Shown here piece after piece: positions 8,384 through 35,504 of a stretch of 64,000 bases of DNA. Below the pieces are notes generated by a model. The model was given only the letters and a program-made list of their open reading frames with translations, searched no databases and had not been told where the DNA came from. Origin of the DNA: a virus; IMG/VR virus record IMGVR_UViG_3300046542_000271, positions 1 through 64,000 of that record; one strand, written 5' to 3'. Position 1 is the first letter of the stretch; each line of letters begins with the position of its first letter. A program made the translations under genes and the position numbers.

Positions 8384-8977
8384 TTAAGTTCCATCTTGAA
8401 GACGTACCTCGCTGTCCTCAAGATAGCGAATGGCACCATTTTCTTCTAAGCGTACTGGACCGTCTACATCTTCGACCGTGAAGATGAGTGTGGCTGGTCC
8501 GTTGTAATAGTAGTTGTCTTGCGTTGGGCGCAGAACGACTGTCAGTTTCCCCTTCACTATAACGGAAGGGTCGAGCTGACGCCTACCACGACTGTCGGCC
8601 GGGAACAGATGTCCGAACGATTCCATGTCTACGTCTAGTCCAGACATGCAGAACATTGCCAACACGTCTTCCACTAAACCGATCATCTCACTGAAGATGA
8701 TCTCCTTCCACGCAGGTCGAGTCGAAGCGGGGTTGGGGATACCGTAGCCGTTGAACTCATCCTGCAATGTATTGCGACGGTACCGCACCGTCTTTGAATT
8801 CTTGTACTTACCTTCGGGTCTTGCTGTGATGGTGATCTCAGTGTTACTGACGATTCCATTGACCTCAGTCTTGTTGGGTTTCACGCGTGGGGCTGAAATT
8901 TCGATCTGTGATTCATCGATACGATTCAAAGCTTTGGCGTTGATTAATTGCAGAATTCGGATGTCGATATCAGCCAC
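8384..8977 (-). CDS. Family A tail-module protein, 197 aa
   Basis: The start is GTG at 8977, with AAAGGGAG 6 nt upstream; no ATG fits better. The product has one family A module: NTEITITARPEGKYKNSKTV followed by RYRRNTL, then a helical middle and a C-terminal beta segment (ATLIFTVEDVDGPVRL). It lacks both the HYN and the L(D/N)GF terminal signatures. It lies 24 nt upstream of the collagen-like fibre gene and may be its chaperone or its attachment protein. That role is inferred from position only. Confidence 0.85.
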   Translation of the reverse strand: MADIDIRILQLINAKALNRIDESQIEISAPRVKPNKTEVNGIVSNTEITITARPEGKYKNSKTVRYRRNTLQDEFNGYGIPNPASTRPAWKEIIFSEMIGLVEDVLAMFCMSGLDVDMESFGHLFPADSRGRRQLDPSVIVKGKLTVVLRPTQDNYYYNGPATLIFTVEDVDGPVRLEENGAIRYLEDSEVRLQDGT

Positions 8978-9053
8978 GCTGATCTCCCTTTAATAAGGTG
9001 GTTCGTTCATATCGTTTGCAGTTATGTATAGTATGTAACAACAGTGCAGTTTC

Positions 9054-9236
9054 TACCCCAATGGCCGACACTCGCTCCGTTGGCCGGGGTACCAACGCTG
9101 GGATGTCCTCCCTAGCACTGACACTAGCCCATGCGGGTGGCTGGTGTAGCTATAGCCCGTAATAGTGCTAAGCCTCAGAACCTATCTAGCGTGAGGACAC
9201 GGATAGCTTCTGGGGATTGTCATTATATGTACAATC
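9054..9236 (+). ncRNA. Chain of RNA hairpins in a gene-free region (candidate ncRNA or leader)
   Basis: The gap 8978-9715 has no credible gene. Its first third folds into successive stems: TACCCC (9054-9059) with GGGGTA (9086-9091) around an inner GGCC/GGCC; TAGCACT (9113-9119) with AGTGCTA (9164-9170); CCTCAGAA and CTATC (9173-9186) with GATAG and TTCTGGGG (9202-9215), 13 bp with one mismatch; and GATTGT (9215-9220) with ACAATC (9231-9236). Strand is assigned from the downstream rightward terminator at 9614-9671. Ends are approximate and expression is unproven. I looked for tRNA signatures and found no convincing T-arm. Confidence 0.4.
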
Positions 9237-9493
9237 AGGACATACGTGTCCACACAACTTGAACTCCGACTCCCTGTGGGATCCTTGCCGATCACCGTTA
9301 TAGTTGGCACCGGCGGGTTACGCGATCAATCCTCTGCCACACACGCTTCTGACTCCAGCGACCCAGACCCGGTACTCCGGCGAGGCATTCAATGGTTTCT
9401 GAGCAGGCCTTGGATCATTAGACACGTCGAGTCCCTGGATCACCTGGAGAGGGTGGTTCATACTCGGCGTGTTTATGCTGCAACTTTTCCGAA

Positions 9494-9511
9494 CCTGTAA
9501 AATTTTACAGG
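9494..9511. promoter_or_regulatory. 18-bp perfect palindrome
   Basis: CCTGTAAAATTTTACAGG is a perfect inverted repeat with no spacer. Its core GTAAAATTTTAC recurs with one change (GTAAATTTTTAC) in the non-coding region at 61551-61562. A dimeric DNA-binding protein site is more likely than an RNA hairpin, because there is no loop. Binding partner unknown. Confidence 0.45.
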
Positions 9512-9559
9512 ACGACACTATCATTTGAACAAAGGTTATCCCATCAGCCTTTGGTCATT

Positions 9560-9597
9560 GGCTCCAGGTCAGAACTTCCCCTTCAGGGCCTGGAGCC
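9560..9597 (+). other. Hairpin with C-rich loop
   Basis: GGCTCCAGG (9560-9568) pairs with CCTGGAGCC (9589-9597) around a 20-nt loop that contains CTTCCCCTTC. It lies 16 nt before a stronger terminator hairpin and may form the 3' part of the same small RNA. It encodes nothing. Confidence 0.45.
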
Positions 9598-9613
9598 TCT
9601 TAGCACTGCGTTA

Positions 9614-9671
9614 GACCACCAACGACGTCCTCCCCCACTCCTCGTCGTTGGTGGTCATTTTTATCTCTTTT
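9614..9671 (+). terminator. Strong rightward intrinsic terminator with no gene upstream
   Basis: GACCACCAACGACG (9614-9627) pairs perfectly over 14 bp with CGTCGTTGGTGGTC (9643-9656), followed by ATTTTTATCTCTTTT. The loop is TCCTCCCCCACTCCT, which contains CCTCC. Only the + direction has a T-run. No rightward protein gene lies between 5175 and here, so it implies a non-coding transcript from this gap or very long readthrough. Confidence 0.7.
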
Positions 9672-9715
9672 ATGCTGCGTCCGTAAAATACTATGCACAC
9701 ACTCTGGAGATAACT

Positions 9716-10156
9716 ATGAATGTAAATACTACACTGACCGGCAAACAGAACATTGTCGCTCTACTGAATTCGTTGAATGGCACTACCCTGGTAGAGGCTA
9801 ACGTGACCCTGGGAACCGTGGAGGCGCTGGTTGAGCAACCTACAAACGCCCGCGTCCAGGTCGCCCCTGGCCCTACCCCAGTCTTCAGTGGTGAAGATTA
9901 CCTCTACTATAACCGTGTCTCCGCACCGGTACAGTTGGGGACTACCGAATCCATCCAAGTCACTGTCACCGCAGGCATGACGGATCAACAGATGTTCACA
10001 GCAGCGATGGCTGTGTTCCCTCTCCAGGCTTCTGAATGGCGTTTTGTAGCTGCGCAGAAACCGATCGGTAGTGATCGTCCTGGTCTACTGGTCATCAGCG
10101 CGCTAGACACCTCGCTGATCTTTCGCGGTGATTACAGCTTCAAGTTGGTCTTCTAA
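9716..10156 (+). CDS. Family A tail-module protein, 146 aa
   Basis: The ATG at 9716 follows TGGAGA with good spacing; the open frame extends upstream through the terminator region but that part is not coding. The N-terminus is a clear family A start: NIVALLNSLNGTTLVEANVT, then NARVQV, FSGEDYLYYNRV and a C-terminal strand ending FRGDYSFKLVF. It is the first of four small rightward family A genes, whereas almost all other members in the window are leftward. It lacks an L(D/N)GF tail. Probably a virion tail or fibre component by family. Confidence 0.85.
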   Translation: MNVNTTLTGKQNIVALLNSLNGTTLVEANVTLGTVEALVEQPTNARVQVAPGPTPVFSGEDYLYYNRVSAPVQLGTTESIQVTVTAGMTDQQMFTAAMAVFPLQASEWRFVAAQKPIGSDRPGLLVISALDTSLIFRGDYSFKLVF

Positions 10157-10219
10157 GTACCCCCTAGATGATAGTATGGAGTTTAGTCCGAACTCTGTAT
10201 CACATCTAGGAGATGCGAC

Positions 10220-10735
10220 ATGAAAATCAATTTGGCTAAAACGCCTCTGGAGAACTTGGTTCTTCAGATCGTTGAAGACAACAGCGGTCTGGTTCTGACC
10301 GCTGCCCAAGTAACTGCTGGCGCTCCATCGACTTTCGGTGGTGATCCACAGAACACCCAAGTGACCCTGACCGCCGTTGATGGTCAAGGTTACAGCGGTA
10401 CCAAGCTCGTCAAGTACGTGCGTCTGGGCCTGGACAGCGGTAAAGCTGTTCCAGTCACCACTCTGGAAGTGCTGGCCGCTGACGACCAGGCTGCTGTTGA
10501 GGCCAAGGTCGCCGTCGCTCTGGGTCTGATCGAAGACGAACTGACCTTCTCCGCGTACACCGCTGCGGTTGACGATGCCACCCCTGGCACCATCACTATT
10601 GCAGCGAACGCTGGTAGCCTGCTGTACGTCGGCGCTGCCAAAACCATCGCTATCACCGTTCCAGCAGTAGCTGACCCAGATCTCGAAGATGAAATCGTCA
10701 TCGACGAACTGAGCGGCTTCGACCCAGAAGCCTAA
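10220..10735 (+). CDS. Family A tail-module protein, 171 aa (tandem copy 1)
   Basis: The ATG at 10220 follows TAGGAG. The product (MKINLAKTPLENLVLQIVED...) is closely similar to the next two genes along its whole length. It shows NTQVTLTAVDGQGYSGTKLV, KYVRLGLDSGKAVP and the C-terminal tail DELSGFDPEA. The tail matches the L(D/N)GF motif found at the ends of other family A proteins and in the long repeat protein at 53860-55941. Codon use is smooth and strongly biased, suggesting high expression. Likely structural. Confidence 0.88.
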   Translation: MKINLAKTPLENLVLQIVEDNSGLVLTAAQVTAGAPSTFGGDPQNTQVTLTAVDGQGYSGTKLVKYVRLGLDSGKAVPVTTLEVLAADDQAAVEAKVAVALGLIEDELTFSAYTAAVDDATPGTITIAANAGSLLYVGAAKTIAITVPAVADPDLEDEIVIDELSGFDPEA

Positions 10736-10778: not shown

Positions 10779-11222
10779 ATGAAGATCGACATCACCAAAA
10801 CGGCCTTGGAGAACATCGTTCTCCAGGTCATTGAGGACAATCCAGGACTCACTCTGAGTGCCTCCCAAGTTACTGCCAGCGACTTGGCCGTATTCGGCGG
10901 CGTTCAGAACACGCAGGTAACCTTGACGGCTATTCCAGGACAGGGCTTCAGTGGTACTGATGTGGTCTATTACGACCGCATGGGGATCAACGATGGCATT
11001 GGCCCAGACGTGACCAGTGTGGAAGTACTCCTCACCGACGACCAGACTGCTGTGGAGGTCAAAGTCGCTGCTGCCATGGGTCTTCGATTCGATGAGTTGG
11101 CGTTCAGTGACTACACCCCAGCCGTCAATGCGAGCACCCCAGGCGTCATCGGCGTGTCTCCAAAGCCCACCAGCATGCTGTACATGGGCGGCGGTGTCTA
11201 TATCACCATCACCGTGGCATAG
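10779..11222 (+). CDS. Family A tail-module protein, 147 aa (tandem copy 2, decayed C-terminus)
   Basis: MKIDITKTALENIVLQVIED is nearly identical to copy 3, also at DNA level. The module motifs NTQVTLTAIPGQGFSGTDVV and YYDRMG are present. The protein stops at ...YITITVA, about 24 residues shorter than its neighbours. Just past the TAG, in a different frame, the DNA reads RGFYPEA followed by TAA, a remnant of the GFDPEA tail. A deletion with frameshift has therefore removed the linker and tail. The rest of the frame is intact, so the protein is probably still made. Confidence 0.85.
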   Translation: MKIDITKTALENIVLQVIEDNPGLTLSASQVTASDLAVFGGVQNTQVTLTAIPGQGFSGTDVVYYDRMGINDGIGPDVTSVEVLLTDDQTAVEVKVAAAMGLRFDELAFSDYTPAVNASTPGVIGVSPKPTSMLYMGGGVYITITVA

Positions 11223-11289: not shown

Positions 11290-11793
11290 ATGAAGATTGA
11301 TATCACCAAAACGGCCTTGGAGAACATCGTTCTCCAGGTTGTTGAAGACAACCCTGGTCTGATCCTGACCGCTGACCAAGTTACTCTTGGCGCAGTGAGC
11401 AACTTCTTTGGCGATCCTCAGAACACTCAGGTGACCTTGACTGCTATCGAAGGTCAAGGTTTCAGTGGTTCCAAGGTGGTCAAGTACAAGCGTCTCGGCG
11501 TTCTTAGCGGGAAGGCTGTACCTGTTACCAGCATCACCATCTCTGCAAGTGATGGGTTTGCCGAGGCTCAGATCGCGGCGGCTGAAGCGATGGGTCTGCG
11601 TTGGGAAGAGCTCCTGTTCCATGATTGGTCTCCACCAGTCAATGTGAACGTTTCAGGCATCATGGGTGTCTCTCCTAAAGCTGGCGGTTACTTCTACGTC
11701 GGTGCGGGTGAGATGATCCAAGTCAACATGTCGTCGGATCTCGAAACCCAGATCGCGACTGACGAGTTGAGTGGCTTCGATCCTGAAGTCTAA
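11290..11793 (+). CDS. Family A tail-module protein, 167 aa (tandem copy 3)
   Basis: The ATG at 11290 aligns with the start of copy 2 (MKIDITKTALENIVLQVVED); an upstream in-frame GTG at 11266 is not supported by the alignment. The product carries NTQVTLTAIEGQGFSGSKVV, KYKRLGVLSGKAVP and the tail DELSGFDPEV, so it is full length. The Shine-Dalgarno is weak (GCGGGTAAG). It is followed by the long hairpin at 11803-11852. It is a recent tandem duplicate of copies 1 and 2. Confidence 0.87.
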   Translation: MKIDITKTALENIVLQVVEDNPGLILTADQVTLGAVSNFFGDPQNTQVTLTAIEGQGFSGSKVVKYKRLGVLSGKAVPVTSITISASDGFAEAQIAAAEAMGLRWEELLFHDWSPPVNVNVSGIMGVSPKAGGYFYVGAGEMIQVNMSSDLETQIATDELSGFDPEV

Positions 11794-11852: not shown

Positions 11853-12908
11853 TTAACGTGGACGAGCAACAACTTCTACCTTAATGTCTTCAATGACACG
11901 TTTTGGAGAAGCTGGTGTGGCAAAGCCCTTAATAAGCGACTGTACCGACGTTAGCATGTTGACGTTTGGAAGGTCCAGGAAACTCGAGGTAGCCGTCTTG
12001 GTGGAAAGTTTAGTCTCCACGTTCGCAGGGTTACCGCCTGGATGAGACCGACCTAGGTCTGACACGATCCCGTAGATAGGACCACTGTTGAGTTTGGATT
12101 GCACGGCTTTAGGGAGGTAAGTCTCTTTAACCCCATCGCCCTTGATCGTAGTCCCCAGTACCGTGGAGCTCAGCTCGGTAGTCGTCACATCCACACCTTC
12201 CGCGATGGTGATACCAGCATCGGCGTTAGCCTGACGATCCATCGCCAACTCACGGATGTTGACAGAACCCAAACGAGAGCTAGGCGCTATCCCGTCATCG
12301 TACACCACGTAGATGTCGGTGATGTGCGCTAAAGCACCGGTTTGTGTGGCACCTGGTTTAGCTACCATGCACGCCATGTTGATCTTCCAGTACGACAGCG
12401 GAACATCCGTGAGCGTGGACACTACAACTCCATCGATGTACAACGAAGCGGCTCCAGTCACTACGTCGTGTACGATCTCGAAGTAGAGGTCTGGACGGTC
12501 GTTATAAACCACCATGCTAGGCAGGCTAAACTGCTTACCTGTCGGTGGAGCGCTGGCGATGTGATGCGTCCCCGAGACCCATGGCCTGAGGGCTGTGGTC
12601 ATCCGCCAGCCAATGATGAGCTTCTTGGCATTACCGATCGGCGGTAGCGTTGGAACACCGCGCTGTGCCTCCACCGGTGGAACTAGCTCGTTACCAGGTT
12701 GGACTTTCAGGTAAAACGCGCTGGCCTCAGAGGTGGTGTAAGTCGCTGTTGGTGACATGATCCAACGACGACTGTTCAACTCAGCGATGGCCAGCACGTT
12801 ACTGGTTGAGTAAGCGCCGATGTCAGACGCCTTCCCGACCAGTCCCAGGCCGTTCGTAATCGGTCCCAGCTTTATCCGGTCAAAGCCTTCTGCGTAGACT
12901 AGTGACAT
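11853..12908 (-). CDS. Family B lectin-like (LamG-fold) fibre protein, 351 aa
   Basis: The core shows the jelly-roll pattern of concanavalin/LamG domains: YFEIVHDVVTGAASLYIDG, then a strand ending ITDIYVVYDDG near residue 205. The C-terminal 140 residues form a second domain ending VIEDIKVEVVARPR. Such domains bind glycans in phage fibres and hydrolases. The ATG at 12908 follows GGGAG. It lies 2 nt after the next family A gene, so the two are translationally coupled. Receptor binding is the likely role, inferred from fold and context. Confidence 0.82.
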   Translation of the reverse strand: MSLVYAEGFDRIKLGPITNGLGLVGKASDIGAYSTSNVLAIAELNSRRWIMSPTATYTTSEASAFYLKVQPGNELVPPVEAQRGVPTLPPIGNAKKLIIGWRMTTALRPWVSGTHHIASAPPTGKQFSLPSMVVYNDRPDLYFEIVHDVVTGAASLYIDGVVVSTLTDVPLSYWKINMACMVAKPGATQTGALAHITDIYVVYDDGIAPSSRLGSVNIRELAMDRQANADAGITIAEGVDVTTTELSSTVLGTTIKGDGVKETYLPKAVQSKLNSGPIYGIVSDLGRSHPGGNPANVETKLSTKTATSSFLDLPNVNMLTSVQSLIKGFATPASPKRVIEDIKVEVVARPR

Positions 12909-12910
12909 GA

Positions 12911-13783
12911 TCAGTTACTCCCTACTGCGTCGAAACCATTTAAGGTATCGGTAACGATTTCATCGTCCAGTACGAGAGGTACAACTATCTCGAAGCCATT
13001 CAATGTATCGTTAGCGATAGCCATGTGGAGCTTCGGCGTATTGTCGAAGTCCGTGGTCTCAAGCACTGGCAAGAGTACATCGATCTTGATAACCGCTGAG
13101 CTGTCGTAGTACCCATCCGGAGAGAACAAGTAACTGTCCGGGTGTGGATAGATCTTCACCGTACCGTCTGGATTAACTACCGACTTGACGTTGTCGATGT
13201 CTTCTGCCAGCAGGCTATAGCCGAGACCCTGGACGTAAGCCAAGAACGCAGCAACGTTGACAAAGCCACCGTCAGGCAGGAGTAGGTTGTCCAGTACGTT
13301 AATCGAGTAACGGTTGTACGTTACATCGATACTTCCACGATACGGGTTGAGCTCCTTCGCCGTGACCGTGACCTTTGACAGTCGTCCAGCCACCTGAGTA
13401 GGTCGAGTGAACGTCAGACGGGTCAGGTCAACCGCTATCTTCATAGCGCTCTTAAAGAGCGTCGAGAACATGGTCCAGCCAGTGACGCCCTTGTTGATTG
13501 CGAGCTCTCCAGCGGCTTGCTGGATCACTTGCGTACGGACAGCACTCAGTTGGGTGGTCGGGACCGTTTTACTCGCCACACGGGCACTCACGGTCTCCAG
13601 GCTACTCTTTACATCCGCACGCTCCGGCAGGATCACGTAGGCGTTGTCAATCATGACCTGGGTGGTGTAATCGGCACTGGCTACACGGGCACTGATTGTT
13701 TCGACGGTCGATTTACCGTCGGCCCGTTCAGGTAAGATGACGTAGGCATTGTCTAACAATACCGTTGAAGTTTCATCAGCCAT
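12911..13783 (-). CDS. Family A tail-module protein with N-terminal duplication, 290 aa
   Basis: The first 72 residues hold two copies of a roughly 35-residue unit containing DNAYVILPERAD and ET(I/V)SARVAS. A helical segment follows, then the family A module (AKELNPYRGSIDVTYNRYS). The end holds two short tails, NDTLNGFE and TDTLNGFD. The ATG follows GGGGAG. It pairs with the lectin-like gene 2 nt downstream. The N-terminal repeats may be a virion attachment or oligomerisation element. Confidence 0.85.
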   Translation of the reverse strand: MADETSTVLLDNAYVILPERADGKSTVETISARVASADYTTQVMIDNAYVILPERADVKSSLETVSARVASKTVPTTQLSAVRTQVIQQAAGELAINKGVTGWTMFSTLFKSAMKIAVDLTRLTFTRPTQVAGRLSKVTVTAKELNPYRGSIDVTYNRYSINVLDNLLLPDGGFVNVAAFLAYVQGLGYSLLAEDIDNVKSVVNPDGTVKIYPHPDSYLFSPDGYYDSSAVIKIDVLLPVLETTDFDNTPKLHMAIANDTLNGFEIVVPLVLDDEIVTDTLNGFDAVGSN

Positions 13784-13796: not shown

Positions 13797-14702
13797 TTAT
13801 TGCTCTTTGGCTGTAAAGGTCATAGAGATATCGTCAAGGAGTGTTTGAGGAGTTTTAAGGTCCGCGTGACTACCGGTGAACGTCAATCCTACGGTGCCGA
13901 GCGTAGACGCCCTGACTGCATCCAGGTGTTGAGACTCGATATTACCAGCGGTTCGGTCGAACGAAACGTCCAACGCCGCCGGATACCCGGAGATGTGGGT
14001 GCGCTTCAATCCGATCTGCAACCCAACCAGTTGCTGTGCCAATGCAGCTGCTGGAAGCGACTTCAGTTTCAGTTTGAACGCGGCGTCGACGTCGTTGGAA
14101 TTGACACTAACCTGGTTACCGCGATCGCCAGCGATAACACCAGCCAGGTTAGCTACCGCCCAATCGGTGTTGGTGACGAGTTCAAGTTCGGCGTCACTGA
14201 CATTGACAGGACCCAGCGCGTCAGCAGCCAAACCTTCCAACACATACACGTCAGTGATGTAACAGAACAAAGCACCGGTTGACTGCATGGTGACGTAGTG
14301 GTTTCCGCTGGAGCCTGTATAACCAGACGCCGCTATCCAAGGCCCAGCGTCGACACGGTACGTAGGAGAGATACCGTACCCACCAGCCATTTCGAAATAG
14401 AACTCTCGATCAATCACACACGGAATCGTTTGACCGCAAACGTTCGCCGGAGCGAACTTTGGTAGGACGCGGAACCCGATGACTTGAGCGTCGCCAGCGA
14501 CGGCTGCAAACGGCTTCTTAACGGTCAGTGAGACGCCACCACTCTGCTTCGCCGCAAGCCATCGTTTACCATTCAGCGATATAAAGTCTACGTTGTTAGT
14601 AAACTGCGTCTGGGTTTGCACTGCGTTGAATAGAGAGGACATTAATCCTGCCTGATCGGTTACCTTCGAGTAGTTCTCGAGTACCAGTAGTTTAACAGTC
14701 AT
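13797..14702 (-). CDS. Family B lectin-like fibre protein, 301 aa
   Basis: The product starts MTVKLLVLENYSKV. It has a beta-rich N-terminal domain with REFYFEMAGGYGISPTYRVD and a strand ITDVYVLEG typical of LamG-like domains. A second domain follows, with FDRTAGNIESQ and the end ISMTFTAKEQ. The ATG at 14702 follows GGAGGGG. It is 3 nt from the gene upstream in transcription. Likely a receptor-binding fibre element. The sequence is strongly diverged from its paralogues, so only the pattern is shared. Confidence 0.78.
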   Translation of the reverse strand: MTVKLLVLENYSKVTDQAGLMSSLFNAVQTQTQFTNNVDFISLNGKRWLAAKQSGGVSLTVKKPFAAVAGDAQVIGFRVLPKFAPANVCGQTIPCVIDREFYFEMAGGYGISPTYRVDAGPWIAASGYTGSSGNHYVTMQSTGALFCYITDVYVLEGLAADALGPVNVSDAELELVTNTDWAVANLAGVIAGDRGNQVSVNSNDVDAAFKLKLKSLPAAALAQQLVGLQIGLKRTHISGYPAALDVSFDRTAGNIESQHLDAVRASTLGTVGLTFTGSHADLKTPQTLLDDISMTFTAKEQ

Positions 14703-27432: not shown

Positions 27433-27448
27433 GATCAGATTCTCGTTG

Positions 27449-27485: not shown

Positions 27486-28376
27486 TCAGCTGATGGCGTT
27501 CGGATCTTCTGGGTCGTTGTAGTGGAGGATGAACCGACCACTCGGCTTGGTCACCGTACCGGCCAGTTCAAGTACCATGATGTACTTGTAGGCAGGGTTC
27601 GAGGCGTACTCGATGGAGTTCAAGCCGTTATAGACGCAGGTAGCGCCGAACACGTTCCACAACAGCGCGGTGGCGTCAACAGCAGTCCACAGCAGAGCGC
27701 CGAGGCCTTTGTCGAGCGACTTCAGTGCGTTAGCGATCAGAGCTGCCTGAGGCTGAGTGAGAACGCCGCCATCGTCGATCAGCAAGAACTGATCGCGGTA
27801 CAGGCTGAAATCGTAGCCGTAGGTGTAGATCAATGCCGAGGTCTGAGTGGTGAAGTCATCCACCGGGTAGTTCAGACCATTCAGCGTGGTCGCTTGCAGG
27901 TAGTTGTCGATCAACGCACCGCCAGGGATGATGTCGAACGTCACGCTACCCAACCAGATCAGACTGCCAGCCTTTGCCCGTACAGTGACAGTCGCCTTAC
28001 CTTGACCGTCCAAGGTAATCGGATCATCTTCCACGTCGTCCGCGTTCAACTTGATCGCGTAGTAGTAGAGGATGTTCGACAGGATGTCGTGAACAGAATC
28101 CACCTGATAGCACGGCAACGTACGTACTGGACGGAAGTGACGGAAGTCACCCAGTTGCAGGCGATCGTACACCAGGTAGGTTTTACCTTTGAAGTCGGCA
28201 CCCGGCATTGGGGTGGCCTTGATAAAGGTGTTCTTGGTGGTGGTGCCCTCACGCCACGTACCAGCAACAGGCTGTGGGACCGAGAGGGCAGTGTTAAGTG
28301 CTGTGAACCGCGTCGTGCCGTTAGCGGCGTTGATGTAGTCCAGTAGACTTTGCTTGGGATTAATGAAGATGCTCAC
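27486..28376 (-). CDS. Family A two-domain tail protein, NAANGTT subtype, 296 aa
   Basis: The start is GTG at 28376 with AGGAG upstream (MSIFINPKQSLLDYINAANG). The module motif is FKGKTYLVYDRLQLGDFRHF, then AKAGSLIWLGSVTFDIIPGG and LNGLNYPVDDF. The second domain has YGYDFSLYRDQFL and the ending GRFILHYNDPEDPNAIS. It is a close paralogue of the 29337-30221 gene along its whole length. Likely a tail or baseplate fibre subunit. Confidence 0.88.
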   Translation of the reverse strand: MSIFINPKQSLLDYINAANGTTRFTALNTALSVPQPVAGTWREGTTTKNTFIKATPMPGADFKGKTYLVYDRLQLGDFRHFRPVRTLPCYQVDSVHDILSNILYYYAIKLNADDVEDDPITLDGQGKATVTVRAKAGSLIWLGSVTFDIIPGGALIDNYLQATTLNGLNYPVDDFTTQTSALIYTYGYDFSLYRDQFLLIDDGGVLTQPQAALIANALKSLDKGLGALLWTAVDATALLWNVFGATCVYNGLNSIEYASNPAYKYIMVLELAGTVTKPSGRFILHYNDPEDPNAIS

Positions 28377-28389: not shown

Positions 28390-29322
28390 TTACTTGTTGT
28401 AGTACATGACGGTGCGACCGTACTTGGCGTACAGGGTAGAGTCCGTCGGGTACATCACAGCGGCGTAGCTGAATCCGGCACGGTTGACTTCCGGGTACGC
28501 GGCGTCAGGCAGGATGATGAACTTCAGGTTAAGTGTCTTGGTTCCAATACCTTTCGGGTTATTGGTCCCGTGGTAGACCCCGAAGTTGATCTCTAGGTCC
28601 TGGTTTACGAAGGCGTCGGCGTATAGCTTACCGATCCCGCCGTAGCTGGTGGTATTGTCGGTATTCACACTGGTAGTCTGGGCGGTGGATGGCCAGCTAC
28701 CAGCAACCGCCTCCTCAGTGAAGTGGCGATCCCAGAACAACCAAGTACCGTACGCTCGACGATCGTCCCATGCCGTGAAGTCGTTCTTCGCGTTCGACGG
28801 CCAAACACCACCACCAAGTTCAGCGGTGGCCATGATGTCAACGCCAAGCTCTTCCTTATCCTGAACCCAGCGGAACGTGGCGGCGCCAGTGTACATCAGG
28901 GAGGTGGCTTTGGTCGTGAGGGTGAAGTCGGCCTCAGGTGCGTAGGTGCCGTGCATCAATGTGTTCGTGTCTTGGAAATCCACCAGCGAGAAGTTAAGAC
29001 CGAACTGGTTATTGATCAACGGAAGAAACTCCGTCATCGTGTACCAGCGTGACGCGAGGAAGCGCTGGATGCGGGGCTTGTTCTCACGCAGCAGTTGCGG
29101 GAGGTTGATCCGACGGTAGGTCAGAGTGATCCCACCGCGATACATGCTACCCGCCTTCGGGGACAGGCGAATCTGGGTATCATGCTTCTGAGGCGTCAGC
29201 GCGATCGCAACTGGCAAACCCACGATCATCGTGGATTCATTGACCGGAAACGGAAGCGTGGGGTTGTCTCGATTGATAAGGTCGAAGACATTCTTAATTG
29301 CGGTACCTTGGTAAATAGGCAT
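28390..29322 (-). CDS. Family A two-domain tail protein, NRDNP subtype, 310 aa
   Basis: MPIYQGTAIKNVFDLINRDN starts the protein and AGGA lies 7 nt upstream. The module motif is YRGGITLTYRRINLPQLLR. The second domain contains the modified motif FTAWDDRRAYGTWLFW and SYGGIGKLYADAFVNQDLEI, ending YAKYGRTVMYYNK. It is a paralogue of the genes at 26554 and 30230 and forms a duplicated pair with the 29337 gene. Confidence 0.88.
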   Translation of the reverse strand: MPIYQGTAIKNVFDLINRDNPTLPFPVNESTMIVGLPVAIALTPQKHDTQIRLSPKAGSMYRGGITLTYRRINLPQLLRENKPRIQRFLASRWYTMTEFLPLINNQFGLNFSLVDFQDTNTLMHGTYAPEADFTLTTKATSLMYTGAATFRWVQDKEELGVDIMATAELGGGVWPSNAKNDFTAWDDRRAYGTWLFWDRHFTEEAVAGSWPSTAQTTSVNTDNTTSYGGIGKLYADAFVNQDLEINFGVYHGTNNPKGIGTKTLNLKFIILPDAAYPEVNRAGFSYAAVMYPTDSTLYAKYGRTVMYYNK

Positions 29323-29336: not shown

Positions 29337-30221
29337 TTAAGCAGCCGAGGCGTCTTCGGGGTCGTTATAGTGAATATAGAAGCGACCAGACGGAATGGTG
29401 ACATCGCCTCTGAGCTCGATACCGATGACGTACTTGTAAACCGGGTTCGTTGGTAGGGCCGCTTCGTTAAGTCCGTTGTAGAAGACTGTAGCGCCTTGCA
29501 GCGACCATGCCGTCGAGGATTGGTTGGAGTTCCACAATGCCTTACCGTCACTGCTGATGTCCAACAGCAACAGCGTCTCCAGAACCGCCGTCAATCCGGC
29601 GCCGTGTAGCGTCCCTTCCTCAATAACGAGGAGACGGTCACGGTTGATGGTGGCGTCGATGGGATACGCGATCACAGCAGCCGAACTACCGGTCTTGAAG
29701 TTATCGATCGGATACTTGATCTGATCCGGTGCGATGTTGGTCAAGTATTCTTCCAGAGGAAGACCACCTGGCATCACCTCGAACGTGATCTGACCGATCC
29801 ACAACGGAGACGAAGGTTTCGCACGCACCGTCACCGTACCGACCCCATTCACGTCCAAGTTCAGCGGATCATCTTCCACGTCATCGGCCGAGAGGTTGAT
29901 GGCGTAGTAGTACCTGATCGCTTCCAGGAGACCGTGGGTCGTGGCAGGCTTGGGAGCCTTGAGCTGACGCGCTGGACGGAACCGAGCAAAGTCGTTGAGT
30001 TGCAGACGGTTGTAGAACACCACCTTGCGACCCTTGAACAGAGGCGTTGCACCCGGAGCTACGATCGCCCAACTGTTCTTCTCGGTCTGTCCTTGATAGC
30101 GGCTGTCCATGACGTCGTACGGCCGTGACAGATCGATGTTAGCCGAGGTCAGACGAGTCGTGCTATTGGCGGCGTTGATGTAATCAATCACCGCCTGTTT
30201 CGAATTGATGAATACAGACAT
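29337..30221 (-). CDS. Family A two-domain tail protein, NAANGTT subtype, 294 aa
   Basis: MSVFINSKQAVIDYINAANS is almost the same start as the 27486 gene. Further shared blocks are ADDVEDDPLNLDVNGVGTVT, LWIGQITFEVMPGGLPLEEY and the ending GRFYIHYNDPEDASAA. AGAGGT precedes the ATG. The two genes are clear recent duplicates that have diverged most in the middle of the second domain. Confidence 0.88.
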   Translation of the reverse strand: MSVFINSKQAVIDYINAANSTTRLTSANIDLSRPYDVMDSRYQGQTEKNSWAIVAPGATPLFKGRKVVFYNRLQLNDFARFRPARQLKAPKPATTHGLLEAIRYYYAINLSADDVEDDPLNLDVNGVGTVTVRAKPSSPLWIGQITFEVMPGGLPLEEYLTNIAPDQIKYPIDNFKTGSSAAVIAYPIDATINRDRLLVIEEGTLHGAGLTAVLETLLLLDISSDGKALWNSNQSSTAWSLQGATVFYNGLNEAALPTNPVYKYVIGIELRGDVTIPSGRFYIHYNDPEDASAA

Positions 30222-30229: not shown

Positions 30230-31177
30230 CTACACGTTGTAGTAGAAGGGCAAGTAACCCATCGCCGCTTGGCCGAACGTTGGATGGTTGGCGAACCAGA
30301 GTAGGAGTACGTGCGTCGCCCCGTCGCGGTTGAGGAACGGGTACGTGACCTTGTTCCCAGCGTTGATCGGCATGAAACGCCAGCCCATCGTGCGACCGTA
30401 GATACCGTTCGGATTATCGGTAGCGTGGAAATCCTCGTATTTGATCCCGAGGTTGTACGCCACGTTAATCTCGTCAAGCAGCGCCTTGAAGCCGTATTGC
30501 GGCATCGAAGCACTCCAGATGAACGATGACTGCGTCGTGGTGGTTGGCCACAGACCAGCAACCGAGTCTTCGGTGTAGTCACGATACAACGGCAGGAACT
30601 CGTTACGTAGTGGCAACGGGAAGGTTTCTTCCGGATCGTACAGACCACGACCTGTAGGCCATACCGCACCTGCCAACTCGCCTTGGGTCAAGACATCGAG
30701 ACCGAGCTCTTCCAGGTCCTGCGACCAGTAAAGATCGATAGTGCCCACGTACTGATAACTCTCATCACCCATGACGAGGTTACGGGTGAAGGTCTGCCAA
30801 CCGCCATAGAAACCAGCACCCGTGACATCAGCAGGGTCCAAGTTCAACCCGTACTTCTTGTTGATCAAGGGGATGTAGGCTTCCTTATACAGCCAGGTAC
30901 CGGTCGTGATGAACTTCTTGAGTTCAAGTCGCTGACTACGGAACAGGATTGACAAGTCAATCCGACGGTAGGTCACGATCACGTTACCACGATAAGGACT
31001 GGACTCTTTCGCCGTGATCCGCATCTGGGTGTTGTGGTCCAGTTGGTTGGGGACCAGGTACTTCTGTGGTTTACTGTAGATGAAGTCGGTCGCGTTAAGC
31101 TTCCACGTCATCGCTGGGTTGTCGCGGTTGATCGCTGCGATAAGCAGGTCAATATCTTTACCGGCGTACAGAGGCAT
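30230..31177 (-). CDS. Family A two-domain tail protein, NRDNP subtype, 315 aa
   Basis: MPLYAGKDIDLLIAAINRDN is the family start and AGGTGAAG lies upstream. The module motif is YRGNVIVTYRRIDLSILFR. The second domain has LPLYRDYTEDSVAGLWPTTT, also seen in the 28390 paralogue (HFTEEAVAGSWPSTAQTTS), and ends MGYLPFYYNV. Likely a structural component of the tail fibre or baseplate. Confidence 0.88.
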   Translation of the reverse strand: MPLYAGKDIDLLIAAINRDNPAMTWKLNATDFIYSKPQKYLVPNQLDHNTQMRITAKESSPYRGNVIVTYRRIDLSILFRSQRLELKKFITTGTWLYKEAYIPLINKKYGLNLDPADVTGAGFYGGWQTFTRNLVMGDESYQYVGTIDLYWSQDLEELGLDVLTQGELAGAVWPTGRGLYDPEETFPLPLRNEFLPLYRDYTEDSVAGLWPTTTTQSSFIWSASMPQYGFKALLDEINVAYNLGIKYEDFHATDNPNGIYGRTMGWRFMPINAGNKVTYPFLNRDGATHVLLLWFANHPTFGQAAMGYLPFYYNV

Positions 31178-31187: not shown

Positions 31188-31994
31188 CTAGTAAGGGTTG
31201 TAATGGAAGTAAAGGCGACCGGTGTAGTTACCCGCTGGGTAGGTCATCACGAAGACGCGCTCGAACGCAGGGTTCGCATCAGGGACCGCTGAGGTCGCAG
31301 CGTCAAACATCTGTCCGTTCGCGAAGTACGGAATACCCAACTTGTTGGTGGTCTTCACCAGGTTGTTGTAGCTGGTCATGTAGCCGGTCTTATTCGGCTT
31401 CATGTCGTCGTAATGGATCGAGAAGTCGTAACCCCAGGTCACCATGCGTCCGTACGGTTGATCGTACTTCTTCGACGGATGACGCAGGACATCCAACTCG
31501 ATACGGTTGACCATCAGGTCCAGCCACGAGGGACCGAACTTGATCGTGACTTCAACGGTACCAAACCACTGCAACGAGTCGGGAGCCATGTTGATGTTGA
31601 GCGTGATCTCATCACCGTCTTCGATGACGACCTCAGCGAAGTCTTCGAGGTCCTCGATTTCGAGGTCGAGCTTCGTAGCCGCTTTGAAGTAAGGGAAGAC
31701 GTTCTCACGAGTGATCGAAAGAGGGGTCTGCCAGTTCAAGGTCGGGAAGAAGTGTGCGATGTCCAGTCGGTTGTAGTACTGAACAACGTCACCCCAGTAG
31801 CCCTTGCTCGGGATACCTTGCACGGTGACCACGGTGTTGCGATCGTACAGATCGGTCGGAGCGAGATCAAAGTAGCGAAGGCGTGTGTCGTTGAACTCTT
31901 TCGGCGGAAGGTAGTCTTCGTTCAACACTTGGTGGATGAGGTTAGCGCTCCCCGCGAGGAACTCCTGCACCACTGGGTTTTCTTCATCGGCCAT
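31188..31994 (-). CDS. Family A two-domain tail protein, 268 aa
   Basis: The N-terminus is acidic (MADEENPVVQEFLAGSANLI). The module has NTVVTVQGIPSKGYWGDVVQ and YYNRLDIAHFF; the strand AEVVIEDGDEITLNINMAPD follows. The second domain has WGYDFSIHYDDMK and ends GRLYFHYNPY. GGAG is 9 nt upstream of the ATG. The gene is 3 nt from its upstream neighbour. Confidence 0.87.
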   Translation of the reverse strand: MADEENPVVQEFLAGSANLIHQVLNEDYLPPKEFNDTRLRYFDLAPTDLYDRNTVVTVQGIPSKGYWGDVVQYYNRLDIAHFFPTLNWQTPLSITRENVFPYFKAATKLDLEIEDLEDFAEVVIEDGDEITLNINMAPDSLQWFGTVEVTIKFGPSWLDLMVNRIELDVLRHPSKKYDQPYGRMVTWGYDFSIHYDDMKPNKTGYMTSYNNLVKTTNKLGIPYFANGQMFDAATSAVPDANPAFERVFVMTYPAGNYTGRLYFHYNPY

Positions 31995-31997: not shown

Positions 31998-32882
31998 TTA
32001 CGGCTCCAATGGGGCGTTGAAATGGAAGTACAGATCACCAATGTAGCCCAGGCACTTGACTGGGTCGACGGTTACACGTACGAAGCGCTCGTACTGGATG
32101 TTGTACTCGTCAGGGAGGTCGACAGTCGAACCCACAGCCTTCACAGTCGCGCCTGCCAGCGAGTAACGCTGGTTGGCTGTCATGGTCCAAGCGTGACCAG
32201 TAATCGCCACCAGGGCCAGTCTGACGGCTTCCAGCTGCGCTGTACCCACCTGTACGGTGTCCAGGTTGGCGAATTGGGCAGAGAAGTCACGCCAGTACGA
32301 GTAAACAGCGGCAAATGGCTTGGAGCTGTAGGTCGCTGGGTAATCGAAGGCACTGACGGTGACGTCGGTGAGGTAGTCCTTGAGCTGATAACCACCACGA
32401 CGCATACCGACGGAGACGGTACCGATCCAGCCAAGGCTGGTAGGGTTGGCTTCCAGGGTGACGCTGATTGGGTTGTCGAGGTCTTTCTCCTCGGTAGTCA
32501 GCGCACGCGAGACGATGTCGTCCGCGGTCAGGATCAGACCGTACTTCTTGTTAAGAGAAGCCACCACATCCATCGTGGTGTTGACCTCCATGACGTCTGC
32601 CAGCAACGGGGTCTGACGGATCAACTCCTTCAAGTCCATCCGGTGGTAGTAGACGGTGACGGAGCCCTGGTACAGCGAGTACTGATCTTTCGCCGTGATC
32701 AGCATCGAGGTATTGACTTTCTCGTCAATGGCCTTCTGCGCAGGCGTCAGCTCCTCAGGGAGGTCAAGGGGGTCGATAGCAGCAGGGGTACCGAAGAGGT
32801 ATTGCTCCTCGACCAGGGCCAGACCGTTGAGTCGGTTGATGGACTCGAGGATCTGAGGAAACGTGGATTTATAAATAGCCAT
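31998..32882 (-). CDS. Family A two-domain tail protein, 294 aa
   Basis: It starts MAIYKSTFPQILESINRLNG. The module contains NTSMLITAKDQYSLYQGSVT followed by VYYHRMDLKELI. A helical piece with NKKYGLILTADDIVSRA leads to the second domain (YWRDFSAQFANLD), ending IGDLYFHFNAPLEP. TAAGG precedes the ATG. It is a textbook example of the family A consensus in this window. Confidence 0.89.
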   Translation of the reverse strand: MAIYKSTFPQILESINRLNGLALVEEQYLFGTPAAIDPLDLPEELTPAQKAIDEKVNTSMLITAKDQYSLYQGSVTVYYHRMDLKELIRQTPLLADVMEVNTTMDVVASLNKKYGLILTADDIVSRALTTEEKDLDNPISVTLEANPTSLGWIGTVSVGMRRGGYQLKDYLTDVTVSAFDYPATYSSKPFAAVYSYWRDFSAQFANLDTVQVGTAQLEAVRLALVAITGHAWTMTANQRYSLAGATVKAVGSTVDLPDEYNIQYERFVRVTVDPVKCLGYIGDLYFHFNAPLEP

Positions 32883-32890: not shown

Positions 32891-33784
32891 TTAATCCTCT
32901 TCAGGGACGATGATTTCGGTTTCGTTGTAGTGGAAGTAAGCGGTCCCTTCCTGTCTCCGTACGTACGGGTAATAAGGGTCGGCCACTTGTTGAATGATCA
33001 CGAACTCAAAGTCCTGACGGGCCTCAGGGCGATCCTTCGTCAAATACTGCGTGATCGTGTATCCCCATCCGGATGGCCAGGAGGTATACCCGAACAGGTT
33101 GCGCATCATGGTGGCAACCGCCGCCGAGTCAGAGAAGAACATCGGCAAGCGCGGGTTGAACCGGATGATCTCGCGGTATGGCGTGAAGTCTGTGCCATAG
33201 GTTGCCATGTTTACGGAATCTTTTACAGTAAACGGTGGAACGCCTGGACCGGGTTTCGGTGGTGCACGATACGTACGCCCCGCGTCCAGCATGGCATAGA
33301 GGTTTGGCTTCTTGACCACGTTAGCCAGGAAGATACGCCGGCGCGTGAAGCGGACAATGAAGTAACCCTGGTACGCCACACTCGAAGCTTTGGCTTCAAG
33401 CTTCAGGTTGGTGGTCTCGTCGAAGTCGAGCCAGCTGTAGTCAGCATCGAGGAAGTCGTCTTCTGACAACATGATGCCGAGGTGCTGAGACAGCCCTGGG
33501 AAGATCGAATAAAGGGTACCGCGACTCACCCCCTCGTATCGGGGAATGATGTCTCCAAACGCCTTGTTGAGGTCCATACGGGCATAGTTGACCGTCACGG
33601 TGCCTTGATAAGGGGAGAGGGGGCTGGAGATGGCTTTTGCGCGAGTATGAGTCGGGCCAGCCATGCCCACAAAAACAGGAGAGGTAAGCTTCAGATGGTC
33701 TGGCTCAATCGGAACCGGCAGCAGGGGAGACGCCGAAATCGCTTGAGCGAGGATATCTCTGCCAGGACCTGGGACCAGGATCAT
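32891..33784 (-). CDS. Family A two-domain tail protein, 297 aa
   Basis: It starts MILVPGPGRDILAQAISASP. The module has SSPLSPYQGTVTVNYARMDL and the second domain YGTDFTPYREIIRF, ending GTAYFHYNETEIIVPEED. It has a strong ribosome binding site (TAAGGAG). It is the first gene downstream of the T-run terminator at 33802-33868, so it may begin a new transcript. Confidence 0.87.
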   Translation of the reverse strand: MILVPGPGRDILAQAISASPLLPVPIEPDHLKLTSPVFVGMAGPTHTRAKAISSPLSPYQGTVTVNYARMDLNKAFGDIIPRYEGVSRGTLYSIFPGLSQHLGIMLSEDDFLDADYSWLDFDETTNLKLEAKASSVAYQGYFIVRFTRRRIFLANVVKKPNLYAMLDAGRTYRAPPKPGPGVPPFTVKDSVNMATYGTDFTPYREIIRFNPRLPMFFSDSAAVATMMRNLFGYTSWPSGWGYTITQYLTKDRPEARQDFEFVIIQQVADPYYPYVRRQEGTAYFHYNETEIIVPEED

Positions 33785-33801
33785 GAGATCGCTCCTTACA
33801 T

Positions 33802-33868
33802 GAACAAAAAAATAAACCAGGATGACGCATAGCGAGAAGAGAACAAGTCTCCATCGCTATGCGTCACG
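33802..33868 (-). terminator. Leftward terminator with 13-bp stem
   Basis: TGACGCATAGCGA (33823-33835) pairs with TCGCTATGCGTCA (33854-33866). Read leftward, the hairpin follows the 33878 gene and is followed by GGTTTATTTTTTTG. The loop can form a small inner stem (GAGA/TCTC). This is the only hairpin of the array with a clear leftward T-run. Confidence 0.7.
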
Positions 33869-33877
33869 TCGAGCTAC

Positions 33878-34438
33878 TTACGGAGCTGGCTCTTCTGGAG
33901 GCGGCTCAGGGTAGTTCAGACCTTCCATCACTGGTTTGGTGATTACGGACGACAGAGGGATGTCATCAGCGGTCAGGGAGAGAGTCAACGACCCGATGAA
34001 TACCGGGCTGTCCGGGTTCATCTGGATGGTGATCTGCTTGGTTTCGTTCGGGGTACCTTCCCACGGACCGGCCTGCGTAACGATACTACCGTCGATGTAG
34101 TCATCTTCGGTGATGTTGGTACGCAGCTTGAGGTTGATCTCGGCCATCAGGTCCGAGAAGTTCTCAGCATCGCCGATACCCAGGGTCAGGGTTTCACCGA
34201 ACAGGAAGCCTTGGACGTCCAGACGGTTGTAGCCCAGGATCACTTGGCCGGTGTAACCCGAACCTGGCAGCGAGGTGACCGTCATGTCGGTGTTGTACAA
34301 CGCACCGGCAGTAGTAGTTACCGTTGGCAGGCCCAGCTCCACCAGGGTGTTATCGAGCGTGGTGCCGTTTTGCTCGTTGATGAGATCGAAGATGATCTCC
34401 TGAGGCAACTTGCTAAAATCACTGATGTGCTTAGCCAT
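33878..34438 (-). CDS. Family A tail-module protein, 186 aa
   Basis: Two adjacent ATG codons occur at 34441 and 34438; the second is better spaced from AAGGA. The product has FDLINEQNGTTLDNTLVELG, NTDMTVTSLPGSGYTGQVIL, then GYNRLDVQGFL, and ends VMEGLNYPEPPPEEPAP, a proline-rich L(D/N)G-type tail. It has one module and no HYN domain. Probable structural protein. Confidence 0.87.
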   Translation of the reverse strand: MAKHISDFSKLPQEIIFDLINEQNGTTLDNTLVELGLPTVTTTAGALYNTDMTVTSLPGSGYTGQVILGYNRLDVQGFLFGETLTLGIGDAENFSDLMAEINLKLRTNITEDDYIDGSIVTQAGPWEGTPNETKQITIQMNPDSPVFIGSLTLSLTADDIPLSSVITKPVMEGLNYPEPPPEEPAP

Positions 34439-34482
34439 CATTGGTTCCTTCAGTAGTGAGGGTGTTCTACATAGGATCGAGC

Positions 34483-34977
34483 TTAAACGAGGCTAGTGTC
34501 CCGTTTAAGGTAGAGTCGTACAGACTCCGAATAGACCCTGGAGGTAGCTGATGCAAAGATCCGAACCAGGGTCCAGTCTTCGGCGTTCACCAACTTCGCA
34601 TTGAGGTCGATGTTGTCAACCGAGACCTCCTCAAGCTTGAGGTGCAAGGCAGCGTTAATGTACGTCAAATTCTCATAGAGGCTAGGACGCTTCCCGATCA
34701 CGACTCGAGGAATCTTTTCACACGCCGGGAGTAGTCGGCGCAATGGAACGCGGTTATAAAGGTAGGTCGCATTCCCTCGATAACGATCGCTCGTGGTGAT
34801 GGTCGCCACGATAGAGGTATCACGACCTTTATTAGCGTCGGCGCTCACAGCGGTTGGTGTACCCCACGACAGCTCCGAGGAGTTGATCGGGGCGTTCCCA
34901 TTCGAAAGCCGGATAATGTCCAGCATCAGACTGAGTTCTGGTTTGGTGTAATCGAATACGATAGCCACGGCGCTCAC
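34483..34977 (-). CDS. Family A tail-module protein, 164 aa
   Basis: The start is GTG at 34977 within GTGA, overlapping the stop of the upstream gene by 4 nt, so it is translationally coupled. It contains MLDIIRLSNGNAPINSSELS, SDRYRGNATYLYNRVPLRRL and a terminal strand SRVYSESVRLYLKRDTSLV. The L(D/N)G tail is missing. It is the second gene from the beginning of the leftward array. Confidence 0.84.
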   Translation of the reverse strand: MSAVAIVFDYTKPELSLMLDIIRLSNGNAPINSSELSWGTPTAVSADANKGRDTSIVATITTSDRYRGNATYLYNRVPLRRLLPACEKIPRVVIGKRPSLYENLTYINAALHLKLEEVSVDNIDLNAKLVNAEDWTLVRIFASATSRVYSESVRLYLKRDTSLV

Positions 34978-35504
34978 CTATTTGGCGGGTCTGGGTAATA
35001 GAGGCCGTCCAGCATGGTTTTAGTGATGATGTCCCTGAGCGGTATCTCTACTGGGTCAGTCGGGTCTTCCTCAGCAGCGAAGACATGAGTACCCACCCAG
35101 ATATACGACGACGCAAAGAACTTCACCGACCAGCCGGCATGTGTACGAGTCGCCAGCTGCACATGCGACAAGTCGAGCTCGACATTATAAGTGCTGGCGA
35201 AGTACACCGCAAGTTGCTGCGGTGTCTTCACTTCCTTTGGAATCAGGATCGTTGGATTACCCAACCCTTGAAGAAGGAGCTCTTGCGTCAACCGATTGTA
35301 ATAGAAGACTTGGTCTTTCTCGACCTTGTCGTGCACAGCGGTAGCCAGCACCACTGTGTTCATGCCATCGATGTCATCGGCCCTAGGTAGGGACAGCACC
35401 AGCGAACTCGCATCAAGCACGACATCGTAGCCTTCGATTACCTCCCTGTTCGTCGACACAATCATGTCGATTAGTTGCTGTTTCCCGTCCATATGTGTGT
35501 CCAT
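34974..35504 (-). CDS. Family A tail-module protein, 176 aa, first gene of the array
   Basis: It starts MDTHMDGKQQLIDMIVSTNR. A second ATG at 35492 is possible; neither has a strong Shine-Dalgarno. It has NTVVLATAVHDKVEKDQVFY, YNRLTQELLLQGLG, SSYIWVGTHVFAAEEDPTDP and the tail DIITKTMLDGLYYPDPPNR. It is the most upstream member, so a promoter for the leftward array should lie in the gap 35505-35645. Confidence 0.85.
   Translation of the reverse strand: MDTHMDGKQQLIDMIVSTNREVIEGYDVVLDASSLVLSLPRADDIDGMNTVVLATAVHDKVEKDQVFYYNRLTQELLLQGLGNPTILIPKEVKTPQQLAVYFASTYNVELDLSHVQLATRTHAGWSVKFFASSYIWVGTHVFAAEEDPTDPVEIPLRDIITKTMLDGLYYPDPPNR

What the first reader, a model, noticed from the sequence alone, without database searches (positions are those of the whole stretch)
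8384..35504. A 27 kb array of about 30 paralogous tail/adhesin genes with alternating A (module) and B (lectin-like) genes
Between 11.8 and 25.7 kb, genes with the family A module and genes with a LamG-like jelly roll alternate, usually 2-12 nt apart. All are diverged but keep the same pattern. This suggests matched pairs of scaffold and receptor-binding subunit, i.e. a phage with many interchangeable fibres. It takes over 40 percent of the window. phiKZ also has paralogous structural genes near its portal, but such extensive alternation with lectin-like partners is unusual as far as I know.
Basis: partly seen in the sequence, partly recalled or inferred. Interest (0 to 1): 0.65.

Follow-up and report, generated by a model that had tools for sequence, protein, structure and literature searches.

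The report
Giant-phage virion array with lectin-like partners
A phiKZ-like giant phage carries a 27 kb block of about 30 small virion-protein genes in which one recurring docking module is interspersed with lectin-like proteins; the same block in phage SPN3US encodes proteins of the head, not the tail, so this is probably a modular, exchangeable adhesin coat whose job is still unknown.

Summary
The array is real. It has 28 genes on the minus strand (8384-35504) plus four convergent plus-strand genes inside it. 22 carry Pfam DUF7941 ("A") and one carries only its C-terminal domain. Six "B" genes are clear homologues with a predicted ConA/LamG-like jelly roll; three more resemble them only weakly or by position. 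Alternation is not strict: reading down from 25.7 kb the order is BBABABBABABBAB. A sister phage (264 kb) lacks one BB pair. Paralogy points to local duplication.

The family is known. In Salmonella phage SPN3US the same array is "paralog family B" (gp138-154), found in virions and assigned by mass spectrometry to the HEAD. Reciprocal best hits from this array to SPN3US gp141, 143, 148 and 154 are collinear. There the partners are Fn3-like, here LamG-like; Burkholderia phage FLC9 fuses DUF7941 and LamG in one protein. Against this, the only solved DUF7941 protein (phiKZ gp127) sits at the baseplate periphery, and siphophage relatives of B lie in tail-tip loci.

Best reading: A docks to the virion and B is displayed, most likely on the head (about 0.5). 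"Tail fibres" is not favoured but not excluded. New variant of a known kind.

The parts
34974..35504 (-). g01, A module (176 aa), first gene of the array
   Evidence: An profile E 2e-27; PF25613
34483..34977 (-). g02, A module (164 aa)
   Evidence: An profile E 1e-36
33878..34441 (-). g03, A module (187 aa); reciprocal best hit FLC9 f325 and SPN3US gp141 (abundant head protein)
   Evidence: PF25613 E 3e-31; RBH
32891..33784 (-). g04, A module + variable C part (297 aa); RBH FLC9 f324
31998..32882 (-). g05, full DUF7941 (An + Ac, 294 aa); RBH FLC9 f323
31188..31994 (-). g06, full DUF7941 (268 aa); RBH FLC9 f322
30230..31177 (-). g07, A module + C part (315 aa)
   Evidence: PF25613 E 2e-28
29337..30221 (-). 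g08, full DUF7941 (294 aa); RBH SPN3US gp143; modelled by AlphaFold2
   Evidence: PF25613 E 2e-42
28390..29322 (-). g09, A module + C part (310 aa); RBH FLC9 f321, SPN3US gp148
27486..28376 (-). g10, full DUF7941 (296 aa); 45% identical to g08; RBH FLC9 f320
26554..27477 (-). g11, A module + C part (307 aa); RBH SPN3US gp154
26041..26544 (-). g12, A module only (167 aa)
   Evidence: An E 3e-32
25721..26044 (-). g13, separate gene for the C-terminal domain of DUF7941 (107 aa), ATGA overlap with g12
   Evidence: phrog_1037 E 4e-8; split conserved in sister phage, FLC9 f317 and SNUABM_54
24723..25712 (-). g14, B jelly-roll protein (329 aa)
   Evidence: leave-one-out HMM E 1.5e-5
23552..24709 (-). 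g15, B-like by position and by-eye motif only (385 aa)
   Evidence: not recovered by B profile; 75% identical orthologue in sister phage
22422..23537 (-). g16, two A modules (371 aa); RBH FLC9 f310 (A + LamG fusion)
21423..22412 (-). g17, B jelly-roll protein (329 aa); RBH FLC9 f311
   Evidence: leave-one-out HMM E 2e-9
20301..21410 (-). g18, two A modules (369 aa), 38% identical to g16
19340..20293 (-). g19, B jelly-roll protein (317 aa)
   Evidence: Laminin_G_3 E 0.0065, below cut-off; hhalign to g20 prob 96
18376..19332 (-). g20, B jelly-roll protein (318 aa)
   Evidence: leave-one-out HMM E 4e-16
17344..18372 (-). g21, A module (sister to g16/g18 first module) + C part (342 aa)
   Evidence: PF25613 E 1e-9; tree
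16421..17335 (-). g22, B jelly-roll protein (304 aa); modelled by AlphaFold2
15915..16409 (-). g23, A module (sister to g16/g18 second module; 164 aa)
14706..15836 (-). g24, B-like by position; marginal profile match (376 aa); no match in sister phage
13797..14702 (-). g25, weak B homologue (301 aa); no match in sister phage
   Evidence: B profile E 4e-4
12911..13783 (-). g26, A module with repeated N-terminal segment (290 aa)
   Evidence: PF25613; An E 7e-18
11853..12908 (-). g27, B jelly-roll protein (351 aa), only 36% identical to its orthologue
9551..10156 (+). p1, convergent A-module gene (true start probably 9716)
   Evidence: An E 8e-29; clusters with SPN3US gp160, abundant head protein
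10220..10735 (+). p2, convergent A-module gene; RBH FLC9 f309
   Evidence: An E 2e-34
10779..11222 (+). p3, convergent A-module gene
   Evidence: An E 2e-33
11290..11793 (+). p4, convergent A-module gene, 53% identical to p2/p3, not found in sister phage
8384..8977 (-). g28, partial A module (197 aa), last gene of the claimed interval
   Evidence: PF25613 E 6e-10
52321..55953 (-). second DUF7941 cluster (378, 154 and 697 aa), outside the finding; syntenic with phiKZ gp126-127 (baseplate periphery)

Best explanation
The block is the orthologue of the SPN3US head paralog array (gp138-154). The A module (DUF7941 N-domain) is a docking unit that binds the virion; the duplicated copies provide many distinct docking sites. 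The C-terminal parts of A proteins, and the neighbouring B proteins with their lectin-like jelly roll, are carried on it and displayed. The most likely job is low-affinity, multi-specific binding of glycans on host or environment by a mixed coat on the head surface, with the set of displayed domains changed by duplicating, losing or swapping genes. Shown: module identity, the B fold by prediction, orthology and collinearity with SPN3US and FLC9, gene gain/loss, and A-partner fusion. Published for SPN3US: virion and head location. Inferred: that A docks, that B is displayed outside, that B binds glycans, and that location carries over to this phage.
For: Collinear reciprocal best hits: g03-gp141, g08-gp143 (106 bits), g09-gp148, g11-gp154. 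Head assignment of that family from tailless mutants, gp141 and gp160 at >300 copies. Numbering map checked on protein masses. A fused to LamG in FLC9 f310, both above Pfam cut-offs. A fused to Fn3-like partner F in SPN3US gp145/148/151 and EarlPhillipIV; F matches an Fn3-like PDB chain, E 1.8e-4. Partner type differs between phages at the same place: none (SNUABM_54), F (SPN3US, EarlPhillipIV), LamG (FLC9, this phage). The A module is the part with high confidence in the model, and phiKZ gp127 is modelled for only 150 of 290 residues, as expected of an anchored module with a mobile rest.
Against: phiKZ gp127 carries the same module in the baseplate periphery, and SPN3US gp237 of the same family was reassigned to the tail, so the module alone does not fix the location. 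No B homologue of a giant phage has itself been located on a virion; the nearest siphophage ones are in tail-tip loci. The SPN3US authors guessed 'Head ejection?' for three members, i.e. inside. No A-B contact was predicted here. The B model is of moderate confidence (pLDDT 70) and Foldseek TM-scores are low (about 0.3 in PDB, 0.5 in BFVD).
Confidence: 0.5

Rival explanations
1. One reading: a tail/baseplate array. A modules sit at the baseplate periphery as in phiKZ gp127 and carry B lectin domains as interchangeable receptor-binding subunits.
For: The only solved DUF7941 chain is in 'outer peripheral region in the phage phiKZ baseplate complex'. SPN3US gp237 is a tail member. B relatives in Achromobacter siphophage AchV4 lie after tail assembly and putative tail fibre genes. 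A collagen-like fibre gene lies directly downstream (5219-8359).
Against: The orthologous SPN3US array is in tailless heads. phiKZ gp127 matches array members at 18 bits or less, SPN3US gp143 matches g08 at 106 bits. The phiKZ gp126-127 synteny is with the separate cluster at 52.3-58.2 kb, not with this array.
Confidence: 0.3
2. Internal head proteins: members are packaged and ejected with the DNA, as the SPN3US authors suggested with a question mark for gp141, gp143 and gp160.
For: Published label 'Head ejection?'. A gene weakly related to internal head proteins (phrog_2497) lies nearby at 38170-39336.
Against: LamG and Fn3-like partners are typical of exposed adhesins (general knowledge); SPN3US family members are not among the published prohead protease substrates, which include the main ejection proteins gp53 and gp54; a relative of the module is a peripheral baseplate part in phiKZ.
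Confidence: 0.13
3. Neutral amplification: the paralogues are redundant copies from recombination-prone tandem genes with no division of labour.
For: Unit number varies freely: SPN3US three cassettes, EarlPhillipIV two, sister phage lacks g24/g25 and p4.
Against: Most copies are intact, diverged and kept one-to-one between sister phages at 36-83% identity; collinear orthologues persist in FLC9.
Confidence: 0.07

Closest known systems
SPN3US paralog family B array, gp138-154 (Thomas 2016, Ali 2017)
   Same: Same module (DUF7941), consecutive genes in one direction, a run of A genes followed by A genes interspersed with partner genes, collinear reciprocal best hits; virion proteins.
   Different: Partner is an Fn3-like protein F in strict (A-F, F, F) cassettes; here the partner is a LamG-like jelly roll, some A proteins in the mixed section carry two A modules, order is BBABA, and there are four convergent A genes.
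Burkholderia phage FLC9 gp307-gp326
   Same: Nearest named relative by sequence: f325-f320 collinear with g03-g10, LamG proteins in the same place, A genes after them.
   Different: LamG genes are not interleaved with separate A genes; instead A and LamG are joined in single proteins (f310, f314). Annotated only as hypothetical proteins.
phiKZ gp126-gp127 (gp127 in PDB 9xqd, baseplate outer periphery)
   Same: DUF7941 fold; profile E 5e-20, Foldseek E 2.6e-5.
   Different: Two adjacent genes, not an array; syntenic with window 52.3-58.2 kb, not with this array; no LamG partner found.
ConA/LamG-like virion proteins of Casjensviridae siphophages (AchV4 gp25-27 and others)
   Same: Best structural and profile matches of B; also consecutive paralogues.
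   Different: Tail-tip locus of a 59 kb siphophage, no DUF7941 found there.
T4 Hoc and other capsid decoration proteins
   Same: Works-like comparison only: exposed adhesive domains on a capsid; SPN3US hexamers carry an unidentified Hoc-like knob.
   Different: No sequence link tested; Hoc is one gene, not an array.

Membership tests
DUF7941 (PF25613) | Score above Pfam gathering threshold | tested here: met
   All seven A proteins scanned individually, up to 146 bits against 27; 29 stretches in the record
SPN3US paralog family B (head array) | Homology to gp138-154 in collinear order | tested here: met
   Four collinear reciprocal best hits; tree weak at deep nodes
SPN3US paralog family B (head array) | Proteins present in virions and in tailless heads | not testable with these tools
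   Known for SPN3US only
SPN3US paralog family B (head array) | Fn3-like F partner genes in (A-F, F, F) cassettes | tested here: not met
   No F match in the window array; one F-type gene in the sister phage near the g28 orthologue
ConA/LamG-like jelly roll (B) | Jelly-roll fold | tested here: met
   Model of g22: top PDB matches are mostly ConA/LamG-like jelly-roll proteins, E 1e-5 to 6e-4, low TM; phage proteins incl. ConA-like ones, E down to 2.5e-11
ConA/LamG-like jelly roll (B) | Pfam Laminin_G_3 above cut-off | tested here: not met
   17.1 bits against 27.6 for g19, none for the others
phiKZ gp131-type tail fibre paralogues (SPN3US family C) | Homology to phiKZ gp131 | tested here: not met
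   A and B profiles do not find the solved PHIKZ131 chain 4gbf
phiKZ-like nucleus-forming phages | phiKZ-type major head protein, phage RNA polymerase gene and PhuZ tubulin | tested here: met
   Major head protein and polymerase in the window, PhuZ in the sister phage E 5e-24; nuclear shell not found with the phiKZ query (uninformative)
   Order BBABABBABABBAB; sister phage lacks one BB pair

The most novel reading that the evidence does not exclude
A general head-surface display system of giant phages: one docking module used on both head and baseplate, amplified into an array, with the displayed adhesin class (none, Fn3-like, LamG-like) swapped between lineages at the same locus and individual partners gained or lost as pairs, giving each virion a mixed set of twenty or more different surface proteins.
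Probability: 0.35. Interest if true: 0.68.

Novelty: new variant of a known kind. Interest (0 to 1): 0.5.

Why it matters
The role of the 17-20 head paralogues of SPN3US, called potentially the largest paralogue family in any phage genome, has been open since 2016. This locus gives two handles on it: the same module has a solved relative in the phiKZ baseplate, and in this lineage the partners are recognisable lectin-like domains, one of them fused to the module in FLC9. That turns 'unknown head proteins' into a testable hypothesis of docking module plus exchangeable adhesin.

Tried and rejected
Five-gene repeat unit (BBABA three times): looks exact in this window, but nearest paralogues are neighbours (g19-g20-g22; g16-g18-g21), not partners five genes apart, and the sister phage breaks the period.

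A-B complex by reading through the in-frame stops between g16 and g17: the aligner placed B-only rows on the A part, so no joint model was run and no A-B interface evidence exists.

Searching viral contigs with the A and B alignments failed because no stretch was conserved enough; g14 alone found no close relative.

phiKZ nuclear shell query in the sister phage: nothing, uninformative. Sigma-70 promoter and terminator scans: at about or below shuffle level. Pfam, PHROGs and PDB sequence searches give no accepted assignment for B. Foldseek matches of B to clostridial neurotoxin binding domains reflect only the shared jelly-roll fold. DUF7941 literature: one irrelevant paper.
Full report
Setting. 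The window is the first 64 kb of a 112,421-base virus record. The phage is phiKZ-like: phiKZ-type major head protein, phage polymerase and DnaB-type helicase genes lie at 40-47 kb, in the order seen around phiKZ gp118-gp123. A sister contig of 263,994 bases, IMGVR_UViG_3300044878_000136 (called G001), carries the same array and a PhuZ tubulin gene (E 5e-24).

What is there. I number the minus-strand genes g01 (35.5 kb) to g28 (8.4 kb) in the direction of transcription, and the four plus-strand genes at 9.6-11.8 kb p1-p4. Gaps within g01-g27 are mostly 2-14 nt; exceptions are the 4-base overlaps g01/g02 and g12/g13, and gaps of 41, 93 and 78 nt before g03, g04 and g24. Family A is Pfam DUF7941, PHROG 1037/2935 'virion structural protein'. 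DUF7941 has 29 matches in this record, 29 in G001 and none in 14 control genomes. A module profile built here finds the N-terminal module (An, about 160 aa) in g01-g12, g16 (twice), g18 (twice), g21, g23, g26, g28 and p1-p4. A second domain (Ac, about 105 aa) follows An in g05, g06, g08 and g10, and stands alone as g13. The g12/g13 split is conserved in G001, FLC9 f318/f317 and Erwinia phage SNUABM_54, so it is not a frameshift artefact.

Family B. g14, g17, g19, g20, g22 and g27 recover each other in leave-one-out profile searches (E 1e-5 to 1e-16), and the same profiles find FLC9 gp311-316. g25 is weak (E 4e-4), g24 marginal and g15 not detected. An AlphaFold2 model of g22 with 16 aligned sequences has mean pLDDT 70 and pTM 0.72. 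Its best PDB matches are mostly jelly rolls of the ConA/LamG class: legume lectins, calreticulin, a GH43 domain, and the jelly-roll part of clostridial binding domains (E 1e-5 to 6e-4, TM about 0.3). In BFVD the best match is a virion structural protein of Achromobacter siphophage AchV4 (E 2.5e-11, TM 0.52), where B-type genes lie just after tail assembly and putative tail fibre genes. The jelly-roll claim therefore stands, at moderate confidence.

Order and evolution. From 25.7 to 11.8 kb the order is BBABABBABABBAB, not alternation. The first modules of g16, g18 and g21 form one clade (support 0.98), and the second modules of g16 and g18 form another with g23 (0.96). Among B proteins the neighbours g19, g20 and g22 are closest. 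So the section grew by local duplication, and the apparent five-gene period is not a repeat unit. G001 has no match to g24 or g25, and I found no p4 there. Orthologue identity is 55-83% for A and 36-75% for B in the mixed section; B tends to diverge faster, but the ranges overlap.

Comparison with other phages. SPN3US: seven A genes, then (A-F, F, F) three times, then A. EarlPhillipIV: nine A genes, then (A-F, F, F) twice, then two A genes on the other strand. SNUABM_54: eight A genes plus Ac and no partner found. FLC9: a run of A genes, then LamG genes, then A genes. F begins with an Fn3-like domain (PDB 3mpc, E 1.8e-4). FLC9 f310 has DUF7941 and two LamG domains in one 1076-residue protein, each family above its Pfam cut-off; f314 also combines the two types by the profiles built here. 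Reciprocal best hits are collinear with FLC9 in the A run (g03-f325, g04-f324, g05-f323, g06-f322, g09-f321, g10-f320), with g16-f310, g17-f311 and p2-f309 beyond it, and collinear with SPN3US (g03-gp141, g08-gp143, g09-gp148, g11-gp154). SPN3US numbers are 266 minus the RefSeq number, checked on masses: gp168 is 188 kDa and 1727 aa, gp141 is 32.6 kDa and 303 aa.

Where it sits. In SPN3US, gp138-154 are 'paralog family B', virion proteins assigned to the head because they are present in tailless particles; gp141 and gp160 are at more than 300 copies (PMC5694885). The 2016 paper calls this 17-member head family potentially the largest in any phage genome (PMC5105663). The 2023 study with a tail-tube mutant counts 21 paralog B proteins among head proteins but moves gp237 to the tail (PMC10052503). 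Against this, the DUF7941 profile finds exactly one credible solved chain, phiKZ gp127 (E 5e-20), and the g08 model finds the same chain by fold (E 2.6e-5, TM 0.66 on the target): PDB 9xqd, outer peripheral region of the phiKZ baseplate. So the module is used on both head and baseplate. The array here is much closer to the SPN3US head array (up to 106 bits) than to phiKZ gp127 (at most 18 bits), and phiKZ gp126-128 correspond by position to a separate cluster at 52.3-58.2 kb. I therefore favour the head, but this is inference by homology.

Mechanism. Shown: module, fold class, orthology, fusion, exchange of partner type, gain and loss of genes. Inferred: A docks to the virion and B is displayed; display is on the head surface; B binds glycans. 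phiKZ gp127 is modelled for 150 of its 290 residues, as expected of an anchored module with a mobile rest, though which residues these are was not shown. An exposed role fits LamG and Fn3-like partners; Heymann 2020 saw an unidentified Hoc-like knob on the SPN3US hexamers (PMC7552025), which might, speculatively, be a family member.

Verdict. It is a known kind of locus with a new partner class and, on present evidence, probably not a set of tail fibres. Neither A-B pairing nor location has been tested for this phage.

Noticed in passing
window 5219-8359 (-) and L011 (sister contig 125250-126344): Collagen-like repeat fibre with Fibritin_C match, 1046 aa here but 364 aa in the sister phage; N-terminal 68 aa 62% identical. 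Large length change of the repeat region.
   Followed up: partly
sister contig G001:126358-127074 (L011): An F-type (SPN3US partner) gene sits near the g28 orthologue, so one phage carries both partner types; this window has no F match at that place.
   Followed up: partly
window 4210-5175 (+): ORF of 321 aa with Kelch-like repeats by eye, no match in the sister region held; not tested with a library.
   Followed up: no
window 12911-13783 (g26), 20301-21410 (g18), 17344-18372 (g21): N-termini carry short repeated segments (e.g. NAYVILPERAD..S..ET.SARVAS twice in g26); FLC9 f310 and the C-terminus of SPN3US gp145 look similar by eye. Possibly interlocking strands between subunits; unexplained.
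   Followed up: no
window 52321-58196 (-): Second DUF7941 cluster syntenic with phiKZ gp126-128, whose gp127 is in the solved baseplate periphery.
   Followed up: partly
window 9551-11793 (+): Four convergent A-module genes; p2, p3, p4 are 53-56% identical, p4 not found in the sister phage. EarlPhillipIV also has opposite-strand A genes right after its array.
   Followed up: partly
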